This document shows positions 10,962 through 32,192 of a stretch of DNA of 64,000 nt, one piece after another. The notes under the pieces are model-generated. The model ran no database searches and was not told where the DNA came from. It saw only the letters and a program-made list of their open reading frames with translations. The stretch comes from Desulfobulbus oralis. Its GTDB lineage: Bacteria; Desulfobacterota; Desulfobulbia; Desulfobulbales; Desulfobulbaceae. Within the stretch, counting starts at the first letter, position 1. Each line of letters opens with the position of its first letter. The DNA lies in assembly GCF_002952055.1 (NCBI RefSeq), contig NZ_CP021255.1, positions 2,488,001-2,552,000 on the forward strand. Direction: 5' to 3'. Both the position numbers and the translations under genes were made by a program.

Positions 10962-11732
10962 GTCCACAGTCAACCTGCTTATGCGGACGCACCTTGCTCC
11001 TTCTCTGTTACCTTCCCCGGCACGGCTCTTCTTCGCTGCGTTGCCCAATTTTTCCGCAAAATTTATTCACACTGTCTCGCTCTAGACCGTGTAGTCACGA
11101 GACTGGAGCCATAAAACAGGGCAGCTGATATGAACGGCTGCGAGAAATGAAGTCGTATGCTTCGCGTACCGGGTGGCTATGCCACGCCGTCGCTTCAGCT
11201 GCAGCGAGGCATTTTCTCAGAGCCCAGACCGGGCCCAGAAACGCGAGCGCCAGGGCGCAGCAGCCAGCAACAGGCAGGCACAGGCCCGGCTGGCCGCTGG
11301 GCCATTTGACGTTCCAGGCGTAGGCGTGCCCGAGTCATGCGCCTAGACCCCTCTTTCTCTTTTGCAGTTTCTTCTTGCCTCTTCCCAGCGTTCCCGGTCA
11401 AGCTCAAGGCATCTCTGCGGGAATGTATCCCATGCTCCCCCGCCATCCATGCGCAGAAATGTGGAGCGTGTTGCATCCTTGCTCAGGTATTCGCCGCGGT
11501 TTGCTCTTGTTCCCGCATGTGCTGGATCATGATTGCAAGACCTGTGGCGCAAAGGAGATCTGCACGCCCCGTCTTGGCATACACTCGCGCACCTCTGCGC
11601 GGAAGAGCGGGTGCATGGCAGCGAGAAGCTCCGCGCAGGAGAGCGCCGTTTCCACAGCGGGGAAGATCTGAAAATCGGTGCTCATCTGCGTATTGCCTCT
11701 CGCTGCTTGCCCGTGCCCCAAAGGCAGCGCGG
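10962..11732. other. Stretch without a convincing gene; possible decayed ORF
   Basis: No frame here looks clearly coding. The best candidate is on the minus strand. A short frame starts at 11685 (MSTDFQIFPAVETALSCAEL) with GAGAGG ten bases upstream. A second minus frame ends at 11343 with a charged tail and could be its continuation after a frameshift near 11540. No family is recognised for either. The rest, 11000-11330, has only short shadow frames. Confidence 0.25.
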
Positions 11733-11993
11733 TTATTTTTTGCAGACAGTCGCCTCGTTCGGCTTCACGCTTTTGGCAAAGTTTTCGGCATCGCCTCGGT
11801 ATTCAAACTGCCGCAGGGGAAAGGTGTTGCTGCCCCGGGCCGACTTCATCTGCTCGGGATCGCGCATGTCCACCTCAATCTTGCCGTTCGCGCAGTACAC
11901 CGTGTAGTACGTCTTCGTTGGCCCGGCCTGGGCCGAAGCCCCGAAGCAGAGCGCACACAGACACAGAAGAGCCAGCATCATCAATGGTTTCAT
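11733..11993 (-). CDS. Small exported protein of unknown function
   Basis: An 86-residue protein with a clear signal peptide (MKPLMMLALLCLCALCFGA, cleavage near residue 22). The mature part has about 64 residues, two cysteines (YCANG and VCKK) and a charged middle. The ATG at 11993 is chosen because GGAGG stands five bases before it; the ATG four codons earlier has no site. The two cysteines could form a periplasmic disulfide. It belongs to a run of small exported proteins between tRNA-Arg and 17.8 kb. Confidence 0.75.
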   Translation of the reverse strand: MKPLMMLALLCLCALCFGASAQAGPTKTYYTVYCANGKIEVDMRDPEQMKSARGSNTFPLRQFEYRGDAENFAKSVKPNEATVCKK

Positions 11994-12030
11994 GGTTTCC
12001 TCCATAAAAAAGCGTCCGGATTGTGAACAA

Positions 12031-12051
12031 GGCCCCCGCCAACCGGGGGCC
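12031..12051. terminator. GC-rich hairpin, possible terminator
   Basis: GGCCCCCG and CGGGGGCC form a perfect 8-bp stem with loop CCAAC. It lies between the exported-protein genes at 12230 and 11993. There is no T-run on either side, so it may be a processing or attenuation hairpin rather than a terminator. Confidence 0.4.
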
Positions 12052-12229
12052 GCATTGCGTGCGTCCGGGCAGGTTGCGCACGAAGAGCCTTGCCGAAGTT
12101 GGGCGATGAACAGAAAATCCCCATAAAAGGCGAACGCATTCCAGCAGGAAAACTGCGCAGGTCTCCCCGCGCCCGACAGGGTTTCCTGCCTGGTAGGTTC
12201 CGCAGCCTGTTTCTTCCGCCCTCCCGCAA

Positions 12230-13009
12230 CTACTTGCTGTCCGTCTCCGTCCAGGAAAGCCGTTTCCAGGTGCCGGGCGCATCGCCGGGCGCGAGCTCCA
12301 GCGTAAAGCTGGTTTTTTTGCTGCCTCCGCCCTCGTCGCCAAAATAGTCCCGCAAGGTGCCGGAAAGCACATAGCCCTCGCCCTTGGGCGTGATGCTGTC
12401 CAAAACCGCCTCCCTGCCGTTGTCGCCGATGCCGTCCACCACGAAGAAGTAGCCCTCTTCCCGCGCCAAAACGCCTGCGGCCAGGATGCCCCTGGGCACA
12501 GCATCTGCGGGCAAGGTGTGCCCGGTGTAGCGCAGGGCGGCCAGTTCCGCAGCCTCGCGGCTCACAAAGACGTTGTAGGGCGTACGGCTCCCGCTCCCTT
12601 TATTGGGCGGCTCATCGAAAAGCTGCGCCTGAGGCAGGCCCTGAAAACGTGCCGGAGCTTCGTCCGGACTTTGCACCGCTTCTGGTCCCAGCTTTTTGCC
12701 GTTCACCCCCAGGATGATATCCGGCCCGGGCGGCAGCCCCTTTTCCCTGCGCTGCTCCCGGGCAAACTGCAGCCCGGCCTTGGCATCGTAGGCACCCCAA
12801 AGCGCGGCGGCCACGATATTTTCCGGCTTCCGAAAATCCGCCTCCACGGCCACGCCCGTGTAGTTCATGGCACTGTGGGTGTCCTGGAGAATCTGCTCCG
12901 CCTGGGCACGTTCCAGCACGCCCGCAGCGGAAGGCACGGGCGCTGCCACCAGGGCCAGCAGGGTAAAACTACAAAACAGAGAGCTTGGCAAAAGAAAAAA
13001 GGCACGCAT
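12230..13009 (-). CDS. Exported protein of unknown function
   Basis: A 259-residue protein starting MRAFFLLPSSLFCSFTLLAL, a signal peptide ending near APVPSAAG. The ATG at 13009 has GGAG six bases upstream, which the longer upstream frame lacks. The mature part has no motif I can name. It contains a glycine- and acid-rich C-terminal beta-type stretch (GYFFVVDGIGDNGREAVLDS). It is probably periplasmic. It precedes the small exported gene at 11993 on the same strand, with 236 bases and a hairpin between them, so co-transcription is uncertain. Confidence 0.75.
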   Translation of the reverse strand: MRAFFLLPSSLFCSFTLLALVAAPVPSAAGVLERAQAEQILQDTHSAMNYTGVAVEADFRKPENIVAAALWGAYDAKAGLQFAREQRREKGLPPGPDIILGVNGKKLGPEAVQSPDEAPARFQGLPQAQLFDEPPNKGSGSRTPYNVFVSREAAELAALRYTGHTLPADAVPRGILAAGVLAREEGYFFVVDGIGDNGREAVLDSITPKGEGYVLSGTLRDYFGDEGGGSKKTSFTLELAPGDAPGTWKRLSWTETDSK

Positions 13010-13142
13010 ACAAAGCTCCAAGGTGAAGAGAGGCTGCCGCCCACCGTCGCGGGTGGTCTGGGATTTGGGCATAGTACCGCCTGCACGTCACAAGGGGCAA
13101 AAAAATCGGGCCGGGTTTGTGCATTGGCTGGAAAGCGAGTAC

Positions 13143-13181
13143 CAAAACGCCGCTCTCCGAACGAACCGGGGGCGGCGTTTG
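13143..13181 (-). terminator. Terminator after the broken gene at 13209
   Basis: On the minus strand AAACGCCGC pairs with GCGGCGTTTT around an 18-base loop that can itself fold (CCGGTTCGTTCGG). It lies 28 bases past the stop of the minus-strand pseudogene. Confidence 0.6.
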
Positions 13182-13208
13182 TGTTCGGGCGTTCAGGCAC
13201 GTGCGTCC

Positions 13209-13700
13209 TTACTTGGCCTTCTGCATGGCCTTTTCAAGCTTCCGGGTCATGTCGGCGTCGTCCTTGAGCGCCGGGGCTAGGGCCTGCAGGCCCGCCTTGC
13301 CGCCATGGCTGGCGATCGCTTCCAGTGCATAATCTCGGGCCCGGCCGTTGGCCTGCGGGTCCTTGGCAATTTCAGCCAACGCGGCCACCAGGTCTTTTTC
13401 CTTGAATTCCCTGGCCAGCGTTTTCCACTCGGCTTTGGGCTCTTTCATAAGATTGCCGATGACCATCCAGGTCGGGAGATTGCCGGAGCGCGGCGTCTTT
13501 TTGAGATAGGCCAGGGTCATCTGCTAGGCCCTGGAGTCAAAGCTGTCAAAGAAGGGGTAATGATACCAGAGTGTGGTCAGGCCTTCGACGCAAGCGCCCA
13601 GCAACTCGCCCTGCGACGCGTCGCCGTTTGCGATCATGGCCTCGATCCTGGGCATGACCTGCGGATTATTCGCCCGGGCCCATTGCGTGAACCCGAGCAA
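13209..13700 (-). pseudogene. Broken gene with an internal amber stop
   Basis: Two minus-strand segments in the same frame are separated by one TAG (13521-13523). The upstream segment contains FTQWARANNPQVMPRIEAMI and ends FFDSFDSRA. The downstream segment continues QMTLAYLKKTPRSGNLPTWM to a charged, alanine-rich end (KLEKAMQKAK). Residue composition is continuous across the stop, so this is most simply one gene inactivated by a nonsense change. Its 5' end is lost or unclear: the frame runs into the opposite-strand gene at 13822 with no ribosome binding site. The product resembles no family I know; the C-terminal half looks alpha-helical. Confidence 0.55.
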
Positions 13701-13821
13701 TAATTTAAGACAGAGCACCCAAGATCTTACAAAAGATCCAGGTCTGCCAGATGCCAGATTGCGACTTGCCCCTGGACCGGGTTTTGGCCCATTCGCATTG
13801 CCCTGCTTCAGGAGAAACACC

Positions 13822-14445
13822 ATGCAGAAAAAAATGCTTTTTCTGACCTTTGCCTTGGGCGCTTGCTGTGCCCTGCCGAGCGTGGCGCCCGCAGCCCCGG
13901 GGGCAAAAGGCGAAATCGTGAAAACCCTGGAATTTACGGACCAGAACGGCCAAAATTCCGTGGTATTGCGGCTCACCGGGGAATTCGCCCGTCCCGAGGA
14001 CAGGCCGGAGAGCGACGCGAACCGGGCGGAACACAGCCGGGAGCTCTTTGCCGAATGCTTTGTGGAAAAGGATGGACAACAGAAGCAGGCCTGGCGGGTC
14101 TATGATTTTATCCACGGCTGCCCCTTTCAACTGCGCCTGGGCTTTTTCCCGGATCTGGCGGCGGTGACCGACCTGGATCGGGACGGCATCTCCGAGGTCT
14201 GGCTGCCCTATTACGGGGCCTGCCAGAGCGACATCACCCCGCCCGGCATGAAGATCATCATGTACGAAGGCGGCCAGAAACACGCTGTCCGGGGCGAGGC
14301 CCATCATCCCGAGGTGCCGGACAGCGGCAGGTACCAGGCGGACGCGGCCTTCAAAAAAGCGCCCCAGTCCTTCCGGCGCTACGCGGACGAGTTGTGGCAG
14401 AAAATGCTGAAGGCAGAATCCCAATTGGACTACAATACTATGTAA
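13822..14445 (+). CDS. Exported protein, tandem paralog 1
   Basis: A 207-residue protein with a signal peptide (MQKKMLFLTFALGACCALPS). AGGAG lies eight bases before the ATG. The mature part has a calcium-loop-like block, TDLDRDGISEVWLPY, near residue 131, followed by MKIIMYEGGQKHAVRG. It ends with a helical segment (DAAFKKAPQSFRRYADELWQ). The next gene is a diverged duplicate with the same order of blocks. The D-x-D-x-D-G loop recalls FG-GAP or EF-hand metal sites. The function is unknown; periplasmic or surface location is likely. Confidence 0.82.
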   Translation: MQKKMLFLTFALGACCALPSVAPAAPGAKGEIVKTLEFTDQNGQNSVVLRLTGEFARPEDRPESDANRAEHSRELFAECFVEKDGQQKQAWRVYDFIHGCPFQLRLGFFPDLAAVTDLDRDGISEVWLPYYGACQSDITPPGMKIIMYEGGQKHAVRGEAHHPEVPDSGRYQADAAFKKAPQSFRRYADELWQKMLKAESQLDYNTM

Positions 14446-14456
14446 TGGAGGCCAGC

Positions 14457-15076
14457 ATGAAAGCGTGCAAGCTATGCAGGAACGCAGTTCTGGCCTGCGC
14501 CCTCTGCACATTTGCCCTGCCCGCCACGGCTGCCGAATACCCCGGTCTTGAGGGCGACATCGTGAAGGAACTGCGTTTTCAGGACAAAAGCGGCGAGAAT
14601 GCGGTGGTACTGACCGAGCGGGAAAAGATCCGGGAGCAGGAAGGCTCCAGCCTGTGGAGCAAGGACATCCGCGCCTACCGCTACCGCCTGCAAGGGGATG
14701 CGGCCAGCCAGGCGTGGCAGATTCATGACTATGTTCACGACTGCGAGACGAGCGTGACCGCCGAATTTCTGCAAGACGAGATTGCCATCACCGACCTGGA
14801 CGACAACGGCCAATCCGAAATCTGGGTGCCCTATCTCATCCGCTGCGCGGGCGATGTGAGCCCGTCCACCATGAAAATCATCATGTACGAGGGCCAAAAG
14901 AAGCACGCCCTGCGCGGCAGGAACCTTTTGCCCAGCATGCGGGCTACACCGGCGAGCCGGGCGAAGGCGAATACAGGGCGGACGCGGCCTTTCAGAAGGC
15001 CAAGCCGCAAATCCGCAAATTCGGCGATCTGCTTTGGCAACGCGCCCTGAAAGCCAGTTTGCAGGGGCAGCAATAG
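14457..15076 (+). pseudogene. Exported protein, tandem paralog 2, frameshifted near its end
   Basis: Starts MKACKLCRNAVLACALCTFA with GGAGG before the ATG, 11 bases after paralog 1 ends. It carries the paralog blocks TDLDDNGQSEIWVPY and MKIIMYEGQKKHALRG. The original frame then becomes arginine/serine-rich and stops at 15050. A change of frame around 14925-14940 instead gives HAGYTGEPGEGEYRADAAFQ and a helical end ...LLWQRALKASLQGQQ stopping at 15076. This matches the paralog's C-terminus (DAAFKK...LWQKMLKAESQ). One base is therefore missing or extra: either a real mutation or a sequencing error. About 47 C-terminal residues are affected. Confidence 0.8.
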
Positions 15077-15117
15077 CCTGACGGGCCTTTCACCAATCCC
15101 CGGAGAGGAGCAACACC

Positions 15118-15861
15118 ATGCAGAAGAACAGGTTTTTGCTTGCCTGCACCGCGACCGTGGCCGCGCTGCTTCCCCTGGCCCTGGCCGCGCCCGGCCTCGC
15201 GGCTACGGCGCCGCTGATGCTCCTCACCCAGTGCGAGGACGCGGGCGACTACAAGCTCACCATGAGCCTCCAGGCCGAGCGGAGCCTGACGCTGACCGAA
15301 GGCACGATTGACTTCGCGCGCAGCACCAATGGCCCGGCATTCAAGGAAGTGCAGCGGAAGAGCCTGAAGATGGGCGAAAGCTACGAGTTCAAGACCGGCA
15401 TCCCGGAAACCATGCCCCTTGTCCAGATCTGTGCGGACCCGGGCGGGAGCATGAAAAAATGCTGGGAACCCATGTGGAGTCAGGCGGACGACGCGGACGG
15501 CTTTCCGACCATGCAGACAGGCTTCGCGCTGGCGACCCCTCTGAAAAAGGACTGGATTTCCGGCTGGCTGGGCCGCTACCAGTGGACGGACAAGGCGGGC
15601 AGGCAATACGCCCTGACCCTGCGGCGGGATGCCTGCCGCCCCGGTGCCTGGATGGATGCGGCGGGCGATGACTTTCTGGCCACCTTCCAAGGGGACAGGG
15701 ATCGGGTGGCAGTCTATCGGGTGGATGTGAACAACGGCCACAAACCCACCGAAAGGCTCTTCACCCTGAAAAGGGAAGGCGGCGAGCTCACGACCGAATG
15801 GGCCGGGATGCGGCCCGCTGGCACGGACGAAAGCGGCAGGTTTTTTGCGCCTGCCCGGTGA
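15118..15861 (+). CDS. Exported protein of unknown function
   Basis: A 247-residue protein with a signal peptide (MQKNRFLLACTATVAALLPL, cleavage near residue 29), preceded by GGAGAGGAG. The mature part starts with TAPLMLLTQCEDAGDYKLTM and has cysteines in CADPGG and KKCWEP that could pair. Tryptophan-containing beta stretches (WLGRYQWTDKAGRQYALTL) suggest a beta-sandwich or lipocalin-like domain, but I do not recognise the family. It follows the two tandem paralogs and precedes an LprI-like gene on the same strand, with small gaps throughout, so an operon is likely. Confidence 0.8.
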   Translation: MQKNRFLLACTATVAALLPLALAAPGLAATAPLMLLTQCEDAGDYKLTMSLQAERSLTLTEGTIDFARSTNGPAFKEVQRKSLKMGESYEFKTGIPETMPLVQICADPGGSMKKCWEPMWSQADDADGFPTMQTGFALATPLKKDWISGWLGRYQWTDKAGRQYALTLRRDACRPGAWMDAAGDDFLATFQGDRDRVAVYRVDVNNGHKPTERLFTLKREGGELTTEWAGMRPAGTDESGRFFAPAR

Positions 15862-15947
15862 GAGTGCTCTGGTTTTGGGTGCGCGGACAGGACCAGTCGG
15901 CCCCGCGTGCACCCCGTTTGCACCACAAGCGCTGGCAAAAGGAAACC

Positions 15948-16394
15948 ATGAAGGAACGCCATCCAGCGCGAACCATTTTCTGCGCAGGCCTTGCGCTTGC
16001 TGCCCTCTTCCTGTCTGCGCCCGCGCTGTTCGCGGACGAGCTGGCTCCTGGCTATGATGCCTGCACGGCAAAAGCTGGAAGCGAAACCGCCGCATTGCAG
16101 GAGTGCAACGCCGCTGCCCTGGCCTATTGGGACAGGAAGCTGAACGAGAACTACAAGGCGCTCAAGGCCCTGTGCGGCTACGCCGAGGAGGCGGACAGGG
16201 CCAGGTGTCGCGAGGCGCTGGTCAGGGGGCAACGCGCCTGGATCACCTACCGGGATGCCATGAAGACCGTGGTCTATTACCGCAACGGCGGCGGCACCCT
16301 GTCCAGTCCGCTGGCAGCCCGCTTCCTGGTGGCAGAGACCAGAAGGCAGGCGGAATTTCTGGGCAATGCTATGCACAACGCAGAAGCCCAATAA
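15948..16394 (+). CDS. LprI-like (DUF1311) exported protein
   Basis: A 148-residue protein with a signal peptide ending near ALFADE. The following domain has the LprI N-terminal layout: YDACTAKAGSETAALQECN, then YWDRKLNENYKALKAL, C-x-x-A-x-x-ARCREALVRGQRAWITYRD. The conserved cysteines and the W-x-x-Y/R helix fit the lysozyme-inhibitor LprI family (DUF1311). The ATG at 15948 is chosen for the AAGGAAACC upstream. In the family's best-studied member the domain inhibits host lysozyme; that role here is inference. Confidence 0.8.
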   Translation: MKERHPARTIFCAGLALAALFLSAPALFADELAPGYDACTAKAGSETAALQECNAAALAYWDRKLNENYKALKALCGYAEEADRARCREALVRGQRAWITYRDAMKTVVYYRNGGGTLSSPLAARFLVAETRRQAEFLGNAMHNAEAQ

Positions 16395-16493
16395 GGCAGA
16401 CGCGCCATTGTGCGGCAGGGCGGGCCGCCATGCCCACGCGAACGCGTATCCGCTGGCGGTTACACATTTTTTCCATTTTTGAAGGAAACAGGT

Positions 16494-17777
16494 ATGGCGT
16501 ACACAGAAACCACAACAACCGGCTATTTCCAGCGTCTGGGCTCGTCATTTTCCGGCATGGGCCTGGGCATCGTGCTCTTCATCGTCGGTTCCGGGCTCCT
16601 GTGGTGGAACGAGGGCAACTTCGTGGCCACCCGGAATGCGCTGAACGAGGCCCAGGGCCTTTCCATGGAGCTGGCCAGCGTGGATCAGGTCGATCCTGCG
16701 GCCGACGGCAAGCTGGTGCACGCGGTGGGCAACGCCGTCACCCAGGACCTGCTGATTGACAGCATCTTTGGGGTGAGCGTGCAGGGCATGCAACTGAAAC
16801 GCAAGGTGGAATTCTACCAGTGGACCGAGAGGTCCAGCACCCAGAAGCGCCAAAAGCTGGGCGGCGGCGAGGAAACGGTCACCACCTACACCTATGAGCA
16901 GGCGTGGCAGGCCGAGCCCGTGAATTCCCAGAACTTCAAGGATCCCCAGGCAAGAACGGCCCATGTCAACACCACGGCCCTCACGGTGCAAAACGAGACC
17001 TTCAAGGCAACCAACGTCACCTTTGGTGCGTACAGGCTCCCGGATTTTCTCATCAGCAGCATCAGCGGTGCACAGCCCCTCAACGTGCAGTTGACCCAGG
17101 AGCAGAAGAACGGCCTGAACCAGCAGATCAGAAACCAGCACGCCGCGGCGGCGCGGCAACAGGGTGGCGGTATGTGGAGCGCAGCCCAGGGCGGATATGG
17201 CTACGGCGCTACCGATATGGTGCACGAGCAGGGCAACGTAGTCTATGTGGGCGCAGCCCCGAACGCGCCCCAGATCGGGGACGTGCGTGTAACCTTCACC
17301 TATGTGCAGCCCGCCAAGCAGATCAGCGTTCTGGCCCAGGTGAACGGCAACACCTTCCAGCCCTTCAAGAGCAAGAACGGCAAGACGGTGAGCGGCTTGA
17401 GCATGGGCGTGAAGAGCATGGACGAAATGTACGAGGCCAAGCACACCAGCAACTCCATGCTGAGCTGGGTTCTGCGCTTTGCGGGTGCGGGCCTGGTCAT
17501 CGCCGGCCTCAAGGTGCTGTTTGCCCCGCTTTCGGTGCTGGCGAGCGTGGTCCCGATTTTGGGCAGAATCGTGGGCGCGGGCGCGGGCCTGGTGAGTTCG
17601 CTGTTGGGCGGCGCCTGGTCGCTTCTGGTGCTCTCCCTGGCCTGGTTGCGTTTCCGGCCCATGATTGGCGGCATTATGCTGGCCATCGCGCTGGTACTGG
17701 TGAGCCTGCTCATGCTGCGCGGCAAGGGCAAGGGTGCGGTGCCGCCTCCCGCGCCACCGGCCCAGCCTGCGGCGTGA
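16494..17777 (+). CDS. TMEM43-family membrane protein
   Basis: A 427-residue protein with one N-terminal transmembrane helix (GLGIVLFIVGSGLLWWNEGN, residues about 23-42). A long extracytoplasmic domain follows, and then about three C-terminal hydrophobic segments between residues 325 and 410. The WWNEGNFVATRNALNEAQG block and overall topology match the TMEM43 (DUF1625) family, whose bacterial role is unknown. The ATG at 16494 has AAGGA eight bases upstream. The end is proline/alanine rich. It is the last intact gene before a run of gene fragments. Confidence 0.82.
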   Translation: MAYTETTTTGYFQRLGSSFSGMGLGIVLFIVGSGLLWWNEGNFVATRNALNEAQGLSMELASVDQVDPAADGKLVHAVGNAVTQDLLIDSIFGVSVQGMQLKRKVEFYQWTERSSTQKRQKLGGGEETVTTYTYEQAWQAEPVNSQNFKDPQARTAHVNTTALTVQNETFKATNVTFGAYRLPDFLISSISGAQPLNVQLTQEQKNGLNQQIRNQHAAAARQQGGGMWSAAQGGYGYGATDMVHEQGNVVYVGAAPNAPQIGDVRVTFTYVQPAKQISVLAQVNGNTFQPFKSKNGKTVSGLSMGVKSMDEMYEAKHTSNSMLSWVLRFAGAGLVIAGLKVLFAPLSVLASVVPILGRIVGAGAGLVSSLLGGAWSLLVLSLAWLRFRPMIGGIMLAIALVLVSLLMLRGKGKGAVPPPAPPAQPAA

Positions 17778-17879
17778 ATGCTGGAACACTGGGCGCGGCC
17801 ACGACAGGGGGGGTCGGCTCCTTTGGCCCGGAAAACCGGAAAGCAGGTAGGCCGCGTAAGAAAAGGGGTACGGCACAAA

Positions 17880-18236
17880 ACCGGCCTTTGCGCTGGTGGA
17901 CCAGCACGCGGTCCACTGCATCATTGACACCGTGCGCGCCAATCCCGGCCAGGTGACCATCGCGGCCATCGGCCCCTGTGCTGCCCTGCATCCCAGCGCG
18001 GACTGCATCCAACAGCTTTTAAGCGCAGGCGCAAATGCGCACGCCGTGGACGCTTGTGGCCGTACCGCCTTGATGCGGGCCTGGATAGGCCGGACGGCCA
18101 TGTGGACTTTGTGCTGTTCATCGGCATGACCGATGCGGAACTGCGAACCCTTGCCGATGGCAGACATGACGTTCGGGAGCTGTACGGGAAATACGGCAGC
18201 GACCTGACCGACTACCGGAGAAATTTCTTGTGTTGA
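17880..18236 (+). pseudogene. Mosaic of fragments: nucleoside hydrolase, ankyrin repeat, unknown
   Basis: The frame from about 17880 gives AVHCIIDTVRANPGQVTIAA, which matches the core of inosine-uridine nucleoside hydrolases. It then changes to CIQQLLSAGANAHAVDACGR and TALM, an ankyrin-repeat unit. Another frame from about 18080 to 18236 continues FVLFIGMTDAELRTLADGRH, of unknown family. No start site or complete domain is present. These are debris of at least two genes, truncated and joined. Confidence 0.55.
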
Positions 18237-18261
18237 GAAGAAAATCGAGGGGACGAAAAAG

Positions 18262-18475
18262 GCAAGGCTCGGGCAGTTCTGCACCCGGAGAAACGCTACC
18301 TCGTTGTTCTGTCGGAGTATCTGGCCGAGGGCGGCGATGACAATGCGGTGCTGAGCCAGGGCAAGGCGATTGAGGGCACGGACCCCATTGACACGGATCT
18401 TTTGAGCGAATACGTGAAAACACACACGCCGGTCACGGTCACGCCGGGCCGCCTGGTGCTGAAGAACCGGAAGGA
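18262..18475 (+). pseudogene. C-terminal fragment of a 5'-nucleotidase
   Basis: The frame gives HPEKRYLVVLSEYLAEGGDD and then IDTDLLSEYVKTHTPVTVTP with a GRLV ending. This is the characteristic C-terminal region of UshA-type 5'-nucleotidase/2',3'-cyclic phosphodiesterases (usual form Y-x-V-x-x-x-FLAAGGDG ... GRI). The catalytic metallophosphatase domain is absent and a stop lies upstream at 18234, so only the tail remains. It lies beside a nucleoside-hydrolase fragment, so a nucleotide-salvage cluster may have stood here. Confidence 0.6.
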
Positions 18476-18605
18476 GCGGGCCAGACCGGAGCGCTGGCCG
18501 TGGACTTGCCCCGGGCCGCAAGGCTCGGGGCGTTTTTTTATCTCGTGCCCATTTTGCCGGATTGGGCGCGAGCCCCTGGGTGGCCTGGGCAAAGAGCGTG
18601 TCCAT

Positions 18606-19277
18606 TCACATTGTCCAGGGCTCCAACAGGAGCGCTCTGCCCTCAAAGAAACGGCGGCGAAAGTTGGCGAACTGATAGTCGTCCGCCAGGATCGGCTCCG
18701 GGGGATGGACTTTTTGCAGAACTTCGTATTCGTGGGCCGTGAGTTCGACAAGGCTCCGATACCTGTCCGGATGGCCGAGGGCGTTCGGATTGCCGATCCA
18801 GACGAAAAAACGGGGGCCATCATCCATTTCCCGATACCCGATGCCGTAAAATTGCCTGTGGCCAGCAAGCGGTCCTGAGCCGCGCCCCGGGCCAGAGCCG
18901 GATTGCCGTCCGCCCGGATGACGAGTCCGCCCACGATAATCCAGTACGAAAAGCTATGGCGCGTGAATGCACCATACCCCTTGCCGCGGAAAAAGACGCT
19001 CTCGCACTGGATGCTGTCCAAGCGGGCATCAGGACGGATCAGCTCCACGGCGTACTCGCCCTCGTGGTCGCATGATCAGGCCCAGGCTTTGCCGCTTGGG
19101 GGCACTGGTATTCGTGATAATCTGCACCGTATTCCGGTTTGCAGCCAAATCCACCTTTTTCGGCAAAAGGCGCAATAATTCCGACACCAGGGCACTGTCG
19201 GGCACGTCCAGCAGACAGCGGTGGTCGTGGGCGTCGTCTGCCTGGCAGACGCTTTCCCGGTCAAAAAGAATACGCAT
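18606..19277 (-). pseudogene. Unknown gene broken by two frameshifts
   Basis: Three overlapping minus-strand frames join into one protein of about 220 residues. Part 1 starts at 19277 (MRILFDRESVCQADDAHDHR; GGAGG eight bases upstream) and runs to LGLIM. The frame shifts near 19070 to DHEGEYAVELIRPDARLDSI and on to AQDRLLATG. It shifts again near 18855 to QFYGIGYREMDDGPRFFVWI and ends ALLLEPWTM at 18606. Each join is seamless in sense and the text on both sides looks coding. The family is not recognised. It is either recently inactivated or affected by sequencing errors. Confidence 0.65.
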
Positions 19278-19559
19278 GACGGATACCTCCAATGGGACAG
19301 GTTATGTCGTGTGTAGGCTAAAGTTGGCAAACCGGGCCAGCCTGCAGGAGAAAAACGCCCGTGAAGGAGCTGCCCGAAATGAACATCCACACACAGTACA
19401 GTTTCTCGTTCGCTTGCTGTAAGACGGTTATTGCCCATGGGGCTCAGTCTCCTTCGCTGATTGTGCTCGCAAAATTCATTATGGAGAATAATAACTGCCG
19501 TCTATGGGCTTTTTATCTTCTCTCAGCCACTCCTGTTGTATTCAATTGTAAGTGCAAGC
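19278..19559. other. Intergenic stretch, no supported gene
   Basis: This AT-richer stretch lies between the broken gene and the IS481 fragment. A plus frame from 19361 runs through it into the transposase remnant, but the part before about 19560 has no recognisable content. Confidence 0.4.
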
Positions 19560-19725
19560 TGAAGCAGGAGGCCAAACGCTGCAACAACAAGTACCCCGGC
19601 CGGCTGATACACATGGACTGCAGGCGTCTTCCCCTGTTGAAAGGACAAGACAAAATCGGGCCTCGCGAGTATATGTATGTGGCCATCGACAGCTTTAACC
19701 AGGAGCTTTACGCTGCTGTTACACT
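19560..19725 (+). mobile_element. IS481-type transposase fragment
   Basis: The plus frame reads KYPGRLIHMDCRRLPLLKGQ and then GPREYMYVAIDSFNQELYAA. This is the start of the rve/DDE integrase core of IS481-like transposases (first catalytic Asp in HMD, second in AID). Both ends of the gene are missing. It lies directly upstream of the intact IS element. Confidence 0.65.
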
Positions 19726-19813
19726 TCTTCTCTCAGGAGTTTGTAAATAACTCTTGCATTTCTTACACCTTACATCTTTACAAAGGAAGAATTCATGCCT
19801 TCACCTGCTCTTA

Positions 19814-21312
19814 GCAGCCCGTTGAAAAAGTCTTCAGGCAAGGCATAATAATGCACAGGCGATCAAATTATGTTGAGGAGGCGTCATGAGTCTTGGCCGG
19901 AAGCAGGCAGAGCAGAAGAGCATGTGGCTGATCTATGATCAGCTGCCCCAAAGTCAGGGGCATGTCTTTTACGAGCGGCTGCAGAAGCTCCTGCACCAGA
20001 AAGCATTTGACGCCTTCCTCGAAAAGCTCTGTGCACCCTTCTACGCCGAAAAGCTCGGCCGCAGGTCCATCCCGCCTGGCCGTTATTTCCGCATGCTTTT
20101 GATCGGCTACTTCGAGGGCATCGATTCCGAGCGCGGCATCTGTTGGCGCTGTGCCGACTCCCTTTCTCTGCGCGAATTCCTCGGGCTCGGCCCCACCGAA
20201 TCCGTGCCTGATCACTCCTCCCTGTGCCGCATCCGGGGGCGCCTGCCGCTGGAAGTGCATCACGAAATGTTTGTCTTTGTGCTGCGGATTTTGGAGCAAG
20301 CCAAGCTGCTGAACGGGAAATATCTGGGCATCGACGCTTCGACCATGGAGGCGAACGCGGCCATGAAAAGCATTGTCCGTCGGGATACGGGCGAGACGTA
20401 TCAGGAAATGCTGGAACGCCTGGCCGAAGAGAGCGGCATCAGGACGCCGACCAGGGCGGAATTGATCGCCTTTGACCGCAAGCGCCAGGGCAGAAAGACC
20501 TCCAACAAGGATTGGCAATCGAGCACCGATGAGGATGCGCGCATAGCCAAACTCAAGGATGGCCGCACCCACATGGCGTACAAGCCCGAGCATGTGGTTG
20601 ATCTGGAATCCGGGGCCATTGTTTCTGCGGTGATACACCCTGCGGATCGGGGTGATACCACAACGCTTGCCACCACACTTGACGACGCCCAGGCCAAGCT
20701 GTGCGCGGTCAGGGACAAGGAAGGAGCGCCCGGCATTGACGAGCCCTTTGCTCTGGTGGCGGACAAGGGCTATCACAGCCGGAACGTGCTGAAGGATTTG
20801 CCGGATGCCTGCACAAGCCGGATCAGTGAACCGGCGCACAAGGGGCGATTGCGCTGGAAAGGCGACATGGATGCCCGGGATGCGGTGTACGGGAACCGTG
20901 GCCGGCTGAAATCCGAAAAGGGCAAGGCGCTGATGCGGGCGCGGGGCGAGCGGGTGGAGCGCAGCTTTGCCCACTGTCTTGACCGGGGCGGCATGCGGCG
21001 GGTGCATCTTCGCGGATTGGCCAATGTGGAGAAGCGCTACATTATTCATGTTGCCGGGTTCAATTTGGGGATCCTGCTGCGGGCCCTGTTTGGTTTTGGC
21101 AGCCCCAGGGGCTGGGCCGATGCCCCTGCGGCACTGCTTTTTGCCCGAATCGGCAACCTGAACCTGCTCATATTGGTCTTTGAGCTGCCGAATGCGGCTG
21201 ATACTCCAGATTGTGTCATGATGGTCATTTCGAGATGGCACAACTGACAGGCGTAGGTACGATGACCTCTTTGCGACACCTTCGGAAAATCAACCTTTCT
21301 TCAACGGGTGCT
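19814..21312 (+). mobile_element. Intact IS5/IS1182-type insertion sequence
   Basis: An element of about 1.5 kb bounded by imperfect inverted repeats. The left end is AGCCCGTTGAAAAAG at 19814; the right end, read in reverse, is AGCACCCGTTGAAGAAAG, ending at 21312. It carries one full transposase gene. It has separated a gene (21313-22360) from its own 5' end. No clear target duplication could be read by eye. Confidence 0.8.
19886..21247 (+). CDS. Transposase of the IS5/IS1182-type element
   Basis: A 453-residue DDE transposase. The N-terminal part (residues 20-110) is a DUF772-like domain: FYAEKLGRRSIPPGRYFRML, then PDHSSLCRIRGRL. The DDE core starts at LGIDASTMEANAA near residue 150, with the second Asp in LVADKGYHS near residue 290 and the Glu in RVERSFAHC near residue 370. 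GAGGAGG precedes the ATG. The frame is intact, so the element may be active. Confidence 0.9.
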   Translation: MSLGRKQAEQKSMWLIYDQLPQSQGHVFYERLQKLLHQKAFDAFLEKLCAPFYAEKLGRRSIPPGRYFRMLLIGYFEGIDSERGICWRCADSLSLREFLGLGPTESVPDHSSLCRIRGRLPLEVHHEMFVFVLRILEQAKLLNGKYLGIDASTMEANAAMKSIVRRDTGETYQEMLERLAEESGIRTPTRAELIAFDRKRQGRKTSNKDWQSSTDEDARIAKLKDGRTHMAYKPEHVVDLESGAIVSAVIHPADRGDTTTLATTLDDAQAKLCAVRDKEGAPGIDEPFALVADKGYHSRNVLKDLPDACTSRISEPAHKGRLRWKGDMDARDAVYGNRGRLKSEKGKALMRARGERVERSFAHCLDRGGMRRVHLRGLANVEKRYIIHVAGFNLGILLRALFGFGSPRGWADAPAALLFARIGNLNLLILVFELPNAADTPDCVMMVISRWHN

Positions 21313-22360
21313 GTGCCTGCTCTCGCTCCTGCGCTGTCCCATGCCGAGGGCTTTGACTTCAGCGAGGACGCGGATGATATTGCCTTGCGGCAGGCAGACG
21401 CGGCCAAAGACCTGGAGCAGCCTGTCAAGCAGATGCCATTTTCCCAGTTTGTGGACCAGTGTCAGGCCACATTGCAGAAGGAATTGCAGCAAAAAATCCG
21501 CGGGAACGAGGATACCCTGATTGCCCATGCCAAGATCAGGGCCGCCTACATCAACATCGATCAGGCTTGCAATGCCACCCGCTGGGCCAAGGAAGCGAAT
21601 ATTTCCAATGCCAGCGGCGTGCCGGGCCTTGGCCTGTACATAGATCTGTACCAGGGCGTGCTCAAAAAGCCGGAGCGTCTGGCCCGGGCGCTGCACGAAA
21701 AGCACTTTTTCTATCACCTGTACCGCTACCGGCAACTGATGCAGTGGTACAACGAGGCGGGCAAGAAGCATGAGACGGGTCTCGAAAATCTGCCGCAGCA
21801 GTTTCTGTCCCTGATTTCCACCATATCCAAGGTCAAGGTGCAGAGCCCTGTTGGCCGGGTGGCTCTCCTGAAGGATCTGCCTGTCTGGGGCATATGCGCC
21901 GTTGGCACGGCGCAGGAGATCGACCGCACGGCACAACAACTGTCGCGCTACTGCTTACCCAGCAGCGCGGCGCGGGATTTGGGCAGGCACAGCTCTATGG
22001 CGCTGGACCACAAGGCCGAGCGGGAGGCTGTGGGGCAGGCGGCGCTGAGCCAGATCGTTGCCCCGCAACACACCATTTCCGCCGAGTGGCAGGATAAAAT
22101 CGTGCAGGCCAACACGCCCTATACCCGGCAATTTTTAATATGCTGAAAGAGACCCAAGCGACCCTGGCTTTTTCCAGCAGGAGGCCAAGGATTTCAACCG
22201 GCTCCACGAGGAGGCCACCAAGCCGGGCAAGCCTTTGGCCGATCTGCTGAACGGCGACCTTTTGCGCAAGTCGCTGGGCAGCGCCATCCCCGGCCACTTT
22301 GATGGAAGCCACCAAGGAGAGGCCATCTGTTCCGCCGTGTGCGCCGTTCTGGCCCAGTAG
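21313..22360 (+). pseudogene. IS-interrupted exported-protein gene with frameshifts
   Basis: Directly after the right IS end the frame reads ALAPALSHAEGFDFSEDADD, like the end of a signal peptide and a mature start. It continues as a helical protein (FVDQCQATLQKELQQKIRGN) to a stop at 22146. Changes of frame at the T-runs near 22130 and 22170 restore FFQQEAKDFNRLHEEATKPG and an end ...CSAVCAVLAQ at 22360. The gene thus lost its 5' end to the IS and has about two further frameshifts. A possible original start (AAGGAAGAATTCATG near 19783-19797) lies before the IS. The function is unknown. Confidence 0.65.
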
Positions 22361-22394
22361 GCAGGCAGGAGCAAAGTCTGGCCCTGGATGCAGC

Positions 22395-22414
22395 GGGGCC
22401 GGAGGACCGGCCCC
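22395..22414. repeat. Perfect 8-bp hairpin
   Basis: GGGGCCGG, loop AGGA, CCGGCCCC. It stands 18 bases before a second, longer hairpin, between the interrupted gene and the IS5 fragment. Confidence 0.6.
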
Positions 22415-22432
22415 CATGGCGCCCCAGCGCAC

Positions 22433-22470
22433 GTTGCCCCGACAGGGATCGCGGTCCCTGCCGGGGCAAC
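22433..22470. repeat. 16-bp hairpin with one mismatch
   Basis: GTTGCCCCG(A)CAGGGA pairs with TCCCTG(C)CGGGGCAAC around a TCGCGG loop. There is no T-run. It sits at the point where similarity to the IS5 ORF B stops, so it may belong to a lost element end or an older repeat family. Confidence 0.6.
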
Positions 22471-22479
22471 TCGTTGTGG

Positions 22480-22945
22480 CGTCTTGCAGGGTGGCTCCTT
22501 TGTAGTCGCTCACCTGGCCTGCCGTGAGCGTCGCAAAGGGCATGGTTTTGGAGTTCAGCCCGCCCTTTGTGCGGCCGATGCAGCGGGAAAGAGCCCTTTT
22601 TTGAGCAAACTGGCGGCGCTTCGATGCGCCTTGAGGTGGGTCGCATCGATCATCACCTGGCCATCCTGTCCCGCTGTTTTTGCCAATTCGGTAAAAATAT
22701 TGTTGAAGATGCCCATCCGGCTCCAGCGCAAAAAACGATTGTAGAGCGTTTTATACGGGCCATACTCGCGCGGCGCGTCTTTCCACTGCAGGCCATGCTT
22801 GATGACATAAATGATGCCGCTGATGACCTTCCGGTCATCGACCCGCGGAATACCATGAGAACGTGGAAAGAGGGGCTTGATACGTTCGAGTTGTTCGGTA
22901 GAAAGGGAGAACAGTTGGCTCATGACGTCCTCCCTGAGCACAACT
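22480..22945 (-). mobile_element. Truncated IS5 (IS427-group) element
   Basis: The first ORF starts at 22923 (MSQLFSLSTEQLERIKPLFP; GGGAGG upstream) and matches the N-terminal half of two-frame IS5 transposases. Blocks include RVDDRKVISGIIYVIKHGLQ and MIDATHLKAHRSA. It carries the AAAAAAG slip site used for -1 frameshifting near 22600. After the slip the second frame reads RCIGRTKGGLNSK and AGQVSDYKGATL, then similarity ends near 22480. Most of the DDE core is missing, so it cannot transpose itself. Confidence 0.8.
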
Positions 22946-23030
22946 AACCAGATTTTCTGCTTTTTGGCAATTCATGAGGCTGGGGCCCAGACACAAGATG
23001 GTCGGGCATCCATACCGCGACCTGCGGCTG

Positions 23031-24512
23031 CTATTTCTGCACGGCGACCGACTGCATCCAGGCAAACAGCTCGTCCAAATCGTAATCACCGCTATGTCCC
23101 ACGCCCCAGGGCAGGGCGTAATCCACGTTTTTGCCGTGTGCCTGCAAGTTGAGCGCGAGCAGTTGGGAGACGGCCAGCGAGGTGTCGCGGTCGTTTTCGC
23201 CGGCGCGGATGCGGTAGTGCTGCGTGCCGCCCTGTTTGATGAAATTCATGGCGTTCATGATGCGGACGGTGGCCGCGTCTGCCGTTTGCGCGCCAGATAT
23301 GGTGCTGTTTTGCGCGCTGAACGCGGTAAAGTGTTTGGCTTGGGTTTGCGCGTCGCCGAACAGGTTGTTCTCACCGGTGGATAAGTCCACGCCGTCAAAT
23401 GCGGGCGCGGTTTTTTGTCTGCCGACAAATTGGGCGTAGGCAGAAAAATCGGCGGCTTTGACTTTGCCGTTTTCTATTGTCAGCCAGGTTTGGCCGGACA
23501 GGTCTTTGCCTTCGCCCAAGGCTTTTTGCGCGGATTGGGCGAGCATGGATTCGATTTGCGCTTTGAAGCTGCCGTTGCCGTTTTTGTCCAGCGTCATCAA
23601 CACGCCTTGGGCGTTTTTCAGCTTCAGGCTGTTCACATAGGCTGGGAACAGTTTTTTCAGGCCGTCTGAAAGGCGTATCTGCTCGGCGGTTTGCGTGCCG
23701 CGAACGGTTTTGCGCTGCACATGGTAGTCCAGCATGGCAATGTCGATTTTTTCGTAGTCGTTCACGCCGTTGAACTGCCATTCGTAGGCGGCATCGGCGT
23801 GTTCCAGATTGGTAATCGGGCAATAGGCGGACACGGCGAACACGTCGTCTGTGGCGTTGGCCGCACCCAGTGCGCGCAGATAGGGCGCGTATTCGGGGGC
23901 GTTGCCGCTGGTGCCGAGCAGTGCCGACAATGCGCCGCCCGCGCTGGTGCCGTTGCTGATGATTTTGCCGGCATTGCCCGCCATTTGGGCGTCGTTGGCT
24001 TTGAGGTAGCGCACGGCGGCTTTCAAATCGACAATGGCGGCGGGCGCACGCCCGTTGGCTTCGGTGCGCCCACGCGCGCCTGCGCTGGCCACCACATAGC
24101 CTTGCGACAGGGCGACGGCGATGGCGTTGGGCTTGCCGCTGCCGGGCGAATCGGTTTCAGGCTGTCCTGCTTCGCCCGGCATATAGCCGCCCACGTTGTT
24201 CGGAAAGAAAATCGGTGCGGTGTCTTTGGTAAAGCCGTTCACGCTGCCACCTTGGAAATAGGCTTCGGGGATGTACACGTTCATGATTTGGTAGCGCGTG
24301 TCGGTAGGCTTCATCACGTAAACGATGTGCTCGAAGGCGCGGTATTGCACGCTCTGCCCGTTCACGTCGATTGTTTTTTGGCTGCCTGCAACTTGGGCAA
24401 AGTCGAGGTTTTTCGGCACGGGGTAGCGCGGCAGCTCCGCCTGTTGCGGCAATGCGGCTTGGGCGGACAGGGCTGTGGCCAGCAGCAGGACGGGGATATG
24501 TTGGAGTTTCAT
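23031..24512 (-). CDS. Exported subtype-B tannase, probably from Neisseriaceae
   Basis: A 493-residue alpha/beta hydrolase with a signal peptide (MKLQHIPVLLLATALSAQA). It follows the subtype-B tannase family throughout: NVYIPEAYFQGGSVNGF, FFPNNVGGYMPG, the nucleophile Ser190 in NGTSAGG, NLEHADAAYEWQFNG, the catalytic Asp in ENDRDTS near 441-443 and His473 in GHSGDYDLDE. The family cleaves galloyl esters of gallotannins. A sampled stretch is about 53% G+C against about 60% in core genes. An AG-type Neisseria DNA uptake sequence lies inside it, and IS debris flanks both sides. All this indicates transfer from an oral Neisseria relative. Confidence 0.9.
   Translation of the reverse strand: MKLQHIPVLLLATALSAQAALPQQAELPRYPVPKNLDFAQVAGSQKTIDVNGQSVQYRAFEHIVYVMKPTDTRYQIMNVYIPEAYFQGGSVNGFTKDTAPIFFPNNVGGYMPGEAGQPETDSPGSGKPNAIAVALSQGYVVASAGARGRTEANGRAPAAIVDLKAAVRYLKANDAQMAGNAGKIISNGTSAGGALSALLGTSGNAPEYAPYLRALGAANATDDVFAVSAYCPITNLEHADAAYEWQFNGVNDYEKIDIAMLDYHVQRKTVRGTQTAEQIRLSDGLKKLFPAYVNSLKLKNAQGVLMTLDKNGNGSFKAQIESMLAQSAQKALGEGKDLSGQTWLTIENGKVKAADFSAYAQFVGRQKTAPAFDGVDLSTGENNLFGDAQTQAKHFTAFSAQNSTISGAQTADAATVRIMNAMNFIKQGGTQHYRIRAGENDRDTSLAVSQLLALNLQAHGKNVDYALPWGVGHSGDYDLDELFAWMQSVAVQK
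23659..23670 (+). other. Neisseria DNA uptake sequence (AG-DUS)
   Basis: A perfect AGGCCGTCTGAA, the 12-base AG dialect of the DNA uptake sequence that Neisseriaceae take up selectively and hold in very many copies. It lies inside the tannase gene. I found no other copy in the window. Confidence 0.9.
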
Positions 24513-24571
24513 GTTTTTTCTTTGCGGGAGGGTTGCAAAAGTCCGTTCCAGTGACAGTATCTGGCAGCATC

Positions 24572-24599
24572 AGCATACGCGGTAGATTCTCATTGTCAA
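24572..24599 (-). promoter_or_regulatory. Sigma-70 promoter of the tannase gene, with a Fur-like half site
   Basis: On the minus strand TTGACA, 16 bases, then TATGCT, about 60 bases before the tannase ATG. The spacer begins AATGAGAAT, which differs from the Fur half-site AATGATAAT at one position. Iron control is only a suggestion. Confidence 0.6.
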
Positions 24600-24689
24600 G
24601 GAACCGCTCGGTCAGGGTGAGCAGAAGTTCAAAGGGCAGGACGGGATTCTGGTCGAGTTGGCAGTGTCAAATACCAAGCAGCCAGAAGG

Positions 24690-25630
24690 AGCCGGCCGTG
24701 CCCGGCGTCCATCTTACCCTGGCAGAACGCATCGGCACCGGAGTATTTGTAACCTTGGGATGGGTTGCCGGGACATTGCCGGATGCCCTGGCCCGCCGCC
24801 ACAGCATCATTTCCAGCAAGCAGCGCCAGGGCAGCTCCAAATCCTGCTTCGTACCCGGACTGCTGACTGCCGGACCCGAAAAAGACGGAAGACGCTGCGC
24901 CACTACCACTGCATGAGCCGCTCCGATCTGCTTGCCCGAACGGATTGCGGGCCGTCTGCGGCCGCACTATCCAGCAGGTGCAGGTATGCGCATCAGTGGG
25001 AGAGCATCTCCTGCTGGATTTACGCTGCCGCACAGCCTGGTGATACCAGCTATCGCCATTTGCGCCGCGCCCGCAGACGCCGCAGGCGGCAAGGCAGGTG
25101 CCTGTTTCCCCGGCGTATCGATAAAGCCCGGCGGCCACTGCCTGTTGCCGACAGAACCCGCTTTGGGGACCGGGAGGCGGATATGGTCTGTGCCTCCAGG
25201 GCAAGGCGCACTGCTCAGTTGCAAGGAGCGCAAAAGTAGCTTTCTGCTGCCGGCCAGGGTTGAGAACAAGATGCCGCCTCGGGCGAGGCGCTCCTGCCGT
25301 GCTTGTGTGAGCTGCCACCGACTCTGCTGCAGACGCTGACCCTTGATAATGACTCGGAAATGGCCGGGTTCGGGGAGCTGGAGCGGGCAGACCTGCGCAT
25401 GTACTTTTGCAGGCCGCATGCTCCGTGGCAACGGGGCACGAACGAGAATGAGGGTGCCTGCTGCGACAGTTTTTCCAGGAGACATCAGCTTGCACAAAAT
25501 CACGGGGAAGATGCTCTTCAGGGCAGCTCATCGGCTGAATAGAAGGTCTCACAACTGGTTAAGCTACCAGATTCCCGCTGAAGTCTGGAACCGTGCTCTC
25601 ACTGCTGCACCTGCATGCTGAATGCATCCA
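24690..25630 (+). mobile_element. Degenerate IS30-family transposase pseudogene
   Basis: Pieces of an IS30 transposase appear in order across shifting plus frames. An N-terminal helix-turn-helix-like block (LTLAERIGTGVFVTLGW) is near 24715. ISCWIYAAAQPGDTSYRHLR and TRFGDREADMVC run near 25005-25190. TLDNDSEMAGFGELERADLR and FCRPHAPWQRGTNENEG run near 25330-25455, and SYQIPAEVWNRALTAA ends it near 25610. At least three frameshifts break it. The 3' part matches the shorter remnant at 10575-10775. Confidence 0.75.
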
Positions 25631-25668
25631 CTCCCTGGGCATGCCGAAGCCAGAGCGGGAGCCGCAGC

Positions 25669-27013: not shown

Positions 27014-27110
27014 GGAAGTGGTCAGGGCACTGGTGGCTCTCCCGGACTTCAAATCCGGTGTGCCGGTTGCAAAACCGGCAGGTGGGTTCGATTCCCATGC
27101 ACTTCCGCCA
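27014..27110 (+). tRNA. selC: tRNA-Sec (anticodon UCA)
   Basis: A 97-base tRNA with a long variable arm (TGTGCCGGTTGCAAAACCGG). The anticodon stem CCGGA/TCCGG holds the loop CTTCAAA (anticodon TCA), and the CCA end is encoded. The acceptor GGAAGTG pairs with CACTTCC; the eighth pair usual in bacterial tRNA-Sec is a G-G opposition here. It reads UGA as selenocysteine, so the genome should encode SelA, SelB, SelD and selenoproteins elsewhere. Confidence 0.93.
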
Positions 27111-31409: not shown

Positions 31410-32192
31410 TTACGGTTGCTTGCCGATGTAAAAGGAGAGGGTGCCTACAGCAACGATTTCGTCGCACACCTTCGTGTCCGCGTACGGAGCCTTATGCTTG
31501 GCCTGGATAAACCAGTATCCGGCCTGCAGGGGAATCACCTCGATCATGCCTTTCAAGTCGGTGTGACCGTAGAAGGCCTTGCTTTCCTTGGAAAGAAAAT
31601 CTGCGAAGGTGGCTGTGACCTCGGCTGTTTTCACCGGTTTGCCGTCGTAGAGCACCTGTACTGGAAAGGCCGCTCCCGGCTTTACTGTCGCCGGATTGAC
31701 CTGGGGCACGATTTCCAGCTTTTGGCCCTGCACCTGGGTAATCAGGGCCGTGTCCATGCCGCCGTCCACGTTGAGAATGCTCTTGGCGGTCATCACCGCT
31801 TCTTCGCAGTAGCTGGCGTCGCTCATCTGGCTGCGGTTGGCCTGCTTCCAGCCTTCGGCGTTCTTGGACCAGAAGGTGGGCTTGTAGTCGCCCAGCACAA
31901 GGTAGCTGCCCTTTTTCAAGGCCTTCTTGCTCTCGTAGGCGTAATTTTCCCCTTTCTGCGTCATTTCCGTGGCCCCGTCGGGGGTCACCAGACGCAGCGG
32001 ATTGAAAATGTGCGCCCGATCCGCAGCAATGGCCTCGGGCTCGGGAAAGCCGTGTCCATAGCCGATCTGCGCCTTGACCTGCGCCTTGTTCGCATCCTGG
32101 GCAGCATTGACCCAGAAATCATGGGCCATGGCCTGCAGAGGCAGAGCCAGGGTACAGAAGGCCAGAGTCAGGCTGCACGTCAGTCGATTCAT
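31410..32192 (-). CDS. Exported DUF4198 protein (feo-linked, 2)
   Basis: A 260-residue protein with a signal peptide (MNRLTCSLTLAFCTLALPLQ) cleaved before HDFWVN, leaving an N-terminal His as in related metal-uptake proteins. HDFWVNAAQDANK, IGYGHGFPEPE and the C-terminal IQAKHKAPYADTKVCDEI fit DUF4198. GGAGG precedes the ATG at 32192, which overlaps the stop of the Cys-rich gene by ATGA. A periplasmic metal-binding helper for iron uptake is the likely role, by context. Confidence 0.87.
   Translation of the reverse strand: MNRLTCSLTLAFCTLALPLQAMAHDFWVNAAQDANKAQVKAQIGYGHGFPEPEAIAADRAHIFNPLRLVTPDGATEMTQKGENYAYESKKALKKGSYLVLGDYKPTFWSKNAEGWKQANRSQMSDASYCEEAVMTAKSILNVDGGMDTALITQVQGQKLEIVPQVNPATVKPGAAFPVQVLYDGKPVKTAEVTATFADFLSKESKAFYGHTDLKGMIEVIPLQAGYWFIQAKHKAPYADTKVCDEIVAVGTLSFYIGKQP

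What the first reader, a model, noticed from the sequence alone, without database searches (positions are those of the whole stretch)
23031..24600. Neisserial tannase gene with DNA uptake sequence inside a sulfate reducer
The gene contains a perfect 12-base AG-type uptake sequence (23659-23670), has lower G+C than core genes in the stretch sampled, carries its own promoter and sits between IS5 and IS30 debris. DUS motifs are selectively enriched only in Neisseriaceae. Together this is strong evidence for transfer from an oral Neisseria-like donor into a deltaproteobacterium, bringing a galloyl-ester hydrolase of unclear use to a sulfate reducer.
Basis: partly seen in the sequence, partly recalled or inferred. 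Interest (0 to 1): 0.85.

Follow-up and report, generated by a model that had tools for sequence, protein, structure and literature searches.

The report
Neisseria elongata tannase in sulfate reducer
A sulfate-reducing bacterium, probably an oral Desulfomicrobium, carries one intact tannin-degrading enzyme gene that is 93% identical in DNA to the gene of the mouth bacterium Neisseria elongata and still bears the Neisseria DNA-uptake tag, so it is a clear single-gene transfer between distant bacteria.

Summary
Confirmed, and sharpened. Window 23031-24512 (-) is an intact 493-aa subtype B tannase (NF041556, E 1e-199). Its DNA is 92.8% identical, without gaps, over 1476 bp to Neisseria elongata ATCC 25295; the next Neisseria copies are about 72%. 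A maximum-likelihood tree puts it as sister to N. elongata (100/99), inside the Neisseriaceae clade. None of 23 congeners, and none of 394 other genomes sampled across its phylum, has the gene. The AG-DUS at 23659-23670 sits at the same place in the N. elongata gene and is the only exact copy in the 2.77-Mb genome, against 2809 in N. elongata. The alignable segment is essentially the coding sequence, lying between degraded ends of resident IS5-like and IS30-like elements; no comparable Neisseria DNA is nearby. Catalytic and gallate-binding residues are conserved and dN/dS is 0.23, so a secreted galloyl esterase is likely but untested. A solid cross-phylum transfer of a known enzyme: a new case of a known kind.

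The parts
23031..24512 (-). Subtype B tannase, 493 aa, with signal-peptide-like N terminus; Ser190-Asp441-His473 and Lys367, Glu381, Asp443
   Evidence: residue roles by alignment to solved tannases and PMC8958541
23052..24527 (-). Segment alignable to Neisseria elongata DNA, 92.8% identity, no gaps
23659..23670 (+). AG-DUS AGGCCGTCTGAA inside the gene, at the same place in the N. elongata gene
24572..24599 (-). Promoter-like match TTGACA-16-TATGCT; -35 (24594-24599) inside the IS30-like end, -10 (24572-24577) just outside it
   Evidence: IS boundary. Consensus match only (0.9 expected by chance)
22486..22989 (-). IS5-like element remnant (DUF4096 transposase fragment 22555-22941), its end abutting the tannase segment
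24581..25629 (+). Degraded IS30-like element, many diverged copies in the genome

Best explanation
A short stretch of DNA holding little more than the tannase coding sequence came from Neisseria elongata or a very close, unsampled relative into the chromosome of a Desulfomicrobium-type sulfate reducer, most likely in shared dental plaque (host identity and habitat inferred). It now lies between the ends of two resident, degraded insertion sequences. The DUS is a passenger that marks the donor. The protein most likely still works as a secreted or periplasmic serine esterase that releases gallic acid from galloyl esters such as tannins and tea catechin gallates, and it may be transcribed from a promoter partly formed by the IS30-like end. 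Shown: donor lineage, nesting, absence from relatives, intact ORF, active-site residues. Inferred: route of entry, expression, activity, benefit.
For: 92.8% DNA identity over 1476 bp to N. elongata, gap-free, next Neisseria about 72%. Tree: sister to N. elongata 100/99, within Neisseriaceae 100/99. No copy in 23 congeners or 394 phylum genomes. One exact DUS in this genome against 2809 in N. elongata, same position in both genes. Single closed contig with host IS on both sides. Tannase B model and solved structures, catalytic residues, dN/dS 0.23.
Against: 7% DNA divergence from the only N. elongata genome compared means that the direct donor may be another strain or sister species, or an intermediate host. 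Some of the constraint behind dN/dS may predate the transfer. No data on expression or activity. Host species name is inferred.
Confidence: 0.95

Rival explanations
1. The transfer is real but the gene is a relic: intact only because it arrived recently, not expressed and of no use to the host.
For: It lies among decayed IS elements; no alignable neisserial promoter came with it; the promoter match is of a kind expected 0.9 times by chance; somewhat more derived base changes on this branch than on that of N. elongata, 32 against 18.
Against: The frame is free of stops and frameshifts over 1.48 kb while the flanking IS are degraded; catalytic residues are intact; most differences are at third positions (64 of 110; 17 of 32 on this branch).
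Confidence: 0.35
2. Both species received the gene from a third, unsampled group, so that the similarity to N. elongata is not a direct donor relation.
For: Only one genome per species was searched; tannase is patchy in Neisseriaceae (22 of 83 genomes).
Against: The gene nests inside a wider Neisseriaceae clade and carries the N. elongata DUS dialect at the homologous position; the next closest genome with a tannase, G057, has no AG-DUS at all.
Confidence: 0.04
3. Assembly artefact or contamination by Neisseria DNA.
For: Reads were not available; the two organisms may share a habitat.
Against: 93% rather than 100% identity to N. elongata; the genome is one contig, 99.99% complete and 0.01% contaminated; host IS sequences abut both ends, and only a gene-sized segment is neisserial.
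Confidence: 0.01

Closest known systems
Subtype B tannase (NF041556; L. plantarum TanLp 4J0C, F. nucleatum 6YQ4, C. butyricum CbTan2 7Q6Y)
   Same: Full model match, catalytic Ser-Asp-His and gallate-binding Lys/Glu/Asp, similar length
   Different: Sequence moderately diverged from the solved ones; present in a phylum where none of 394 other sampled genomes has it
Neisseria elongata tannase (L001 6001-7476)
   Same: 93% DNA, 91% protein, same DUS position
   Different: Upstream and downstream flanks, ribosome-binding region and last seven codons differ; no N. elongata promoter region retained
DUS-dialect tracing of islands within Neisseriaceae (PMC7371117)
   Same: Uses DUS dialect to name the donor of transferred DNA
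   Different: That work traces elements within Neisseriaceae; here the watermark is in another phylum and in a single gene

Membership tests
Subtype B tannase | Match to NF041556 above its curated cut-off (300 bits) | tested here: met
   664.6 bits, E 1e-199; subtype A model is below its own cut-off
Subtype B tannase | Catalytic Ser in GxSxG, catalytic Asp and His; gallate-binding Lys, Glu, Asp | tested here: met
   Ser190, Asp441, His473, Lys367, Glu381, Asp443 (PMC8958541)
Subtype B tannase | Hydrolysis of galloyl esters | not testable with these tools
   Needs an enzyme assay
Neisseriaceae-derived gene | Nests among Neisseriaceae homologues in a supported tree | tested here: met
Neisseriaceae-derived gene | DUS of the donor dialect, not enriched in the recipient | tested here: met
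IS-bounded (composite-transposon-like) passenger gene | Two related, complete IS copies that could move the segment together | tested here: not met
   The two flanking elements are of different families (IS5-like, IS30-like) and degraded

The most novel reading that the evidence does not exclude
A foreign coding sequence without an alignable donor promoter was captured in an insertion-sequence-rich genome and is expressed from a promoter formed at the end of an IS30-like element, giving an oral sulfate reducer a working tannase that lets it tolerate or use galloylated polyphenols in dental plaque.
Probability: 0.25. Interest if true: 0.5.

Novelty: new member of a known kind. Interest (0 to 1): 0.42.

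Why it matters
It is a clean, well-bounded example of a single gene crossing phyla, probably between co-resident mouth bacteria, with the donor named to species level by both a tree and a DNA uptake watermark. It suggests that uptake motifs can be used to trace the outflow of Neisseria DNA into unrelated bacteria; searching for rare exact DUS in non-Neisseriaceae genomes would be a cheap scan. No paper reporting this transfer was found among those held.

Tried and rejected
Carriage on a plasmid, phage or virus: no match in plasmid records, phage records or viral contigs. A larger neisserial island: only the tannase matches N. elongata strongly in 20 kb around it, apart from one weak match of 96 bp at 73% (E 1e-6), which falls at window 31632-31727. 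Genome-wide, DUS with up to one mismatch are fewer than in the reversed control (16 against 27), so there is no sign of much more DUS-rich DNA. G+C as evidence: rejected. Empty site in congeners: looked for with a 20-kb query, but the left flank is accessory and gene order is not kept in relatives, so no clean empty site could be defined. Alignable neisserial sequence in the 41 bp after the stop (22990-23030) and in 24528-24580: only scattered matches. Structure prediction was not run because solved tannases already match over nearly the full length.

Full report
What is there. The minus strand of 23031-24512 is one open frame of 493 aa. NCBIfam calls it a subtype B tannase with E 1e-199 over the whole model. 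Near full-length homology to solved tannases (6YQ4, 7Q6Y, 4J0C and others) is clear. The active-site residues are in place: Ser190 in GTSAGG, Asp441, His473, and the gallate-binding Lys367, Glu381 and Asp443 (roles as described in PMC8958541; the residue correspondence was read from the alignment). The N terminus looks like a cleavable signal peptide (read from the sequence).

Where it comes from. The closest relative among the species genomes searched is Neisseria elongata ATCC 25295, 91% in protein and 92.8% in DNA, 1369 of 1476 bases without a gap. Among 46 genomes of that genus the next copies are about 72% in DNA. In the family, 22 of 83 genomes have a match, two of them only broken or partial copies. 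A maximum-likelihood tree of 32 tannases puts the window protein beside N. elongata with 100/99 support, and both inside a Neisseriaceae clade supported 100/99 against Bacteroidota, Verrucomicrobiota, Bacillota and Synergistota sequences. On the recipient side, 23 congeners and 394 genomes sampled over the phylum lack the gene (the two sets overlap, and some congeners are incomplete). The direction Neisseria to sulfate reducer therefore needs one event.

The uptake sequence. The exact 12-mer AGGCCGTCTGAA at 23659-23670 occurs once in the 2.77-Mb genome and 2809 times in N. elongata. It is present at the same place in the N. elongata gene. AG-DUS is the dialect of N. elongata (PMC3630211). The 10-mer core is no commoner in this genome than its reversed control (9 and 9), and in the window near-matches are at chance level. 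The DUS is thus inherited with the gene and marks the donor. Nothing here suggests that it drove uptake by this recipient.

The edges. Alignment to N. elongata covers 23052-24527: it stops 15 bp before the start codon and within the last seven codons. The N. elongata intergenic flanks, with their own DUS copies, are missing. Left of the gene, an IS5-like remnant ends at about 22989; right of it an IS30-like remnant begins at about 24581. Both families are repeated many times in this genome, and a 20-kb query holding them gave no IS match in the N. elongata genome. No other neisserial segment of comparable strength lies in that 20 kb. How such a short piece entered is not shown. Illegitimate recombination of acquired DNA, followed or accompanied by IS insertion, is the simplest inference.

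Expression. The only sigma-70-like match upstream has its -35 hexamer (TTGACA, 24594-24599) inside the IS30-like terminus and its -10 (TATGCT, 24572-24577) just outside. Several other IS30-like copies read TTGGCA at that position, so the perfect box looks particular to this copy. About one such match is expected by chance in the region, so this remains a suggestion.

Selection. Pairwise dN/dS with N. elongata is 0.23 (dS 0.197, dN 0.045), and differences concentrate at third positions. Polarised against other Neisseria, 32 changed bases fall on this branch and 18 on the N. elongata branch, a mild excess. The frame is intact while both neighbouring IS are degraded. A working enzyme is more likely than a relic, but not proved.

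Host. A single 2,774,417-bp contig with many congeners fits Desulfomicrobium orale, a periodontal sulfate reducer, from my own knowledge; this was not confirmed (one search found no record). N. elongata is an oral commensal (own knowledge), so a shared plaque habitat is plausible.

Judgement. It is an ordinary kind of event (single-gene transfer of a known enzyme) with unusually clean evidence, across phyla and with a donor watermark.

Noticed in passing
L001 6001-7476 and L069 to L086: Many other Neisseria tannases begin with a lipoprotein-like signal (LSACA type), while the N. elongata and window copies have a signal without such a cysteine (LSAQA), which suggests a different location.
   Followed up: no
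window 11000-25650: Most of this stretch has no counterpart in congeners and holds remains of at least three IS families (IS1182-like at 19886-21247, IS5-like, IS30-like), each repeated in the genome; it looks like an accessory region between polA with a tRNA and the tRNA-Sec at 27014.
   Followed up: partly
window 15798-17777: A LprI-type (lysozyme inhibitor) protein and a TMEM43-family membrane protein lie side by side in the accessory region.
   Followed up: no
G100 and G123 (Neisseriaceae genomes): Two Neisseriaceae genomes hold broken or partial tannase genes, so the gene is being lost in parts of the donor family.
   Followed up: no
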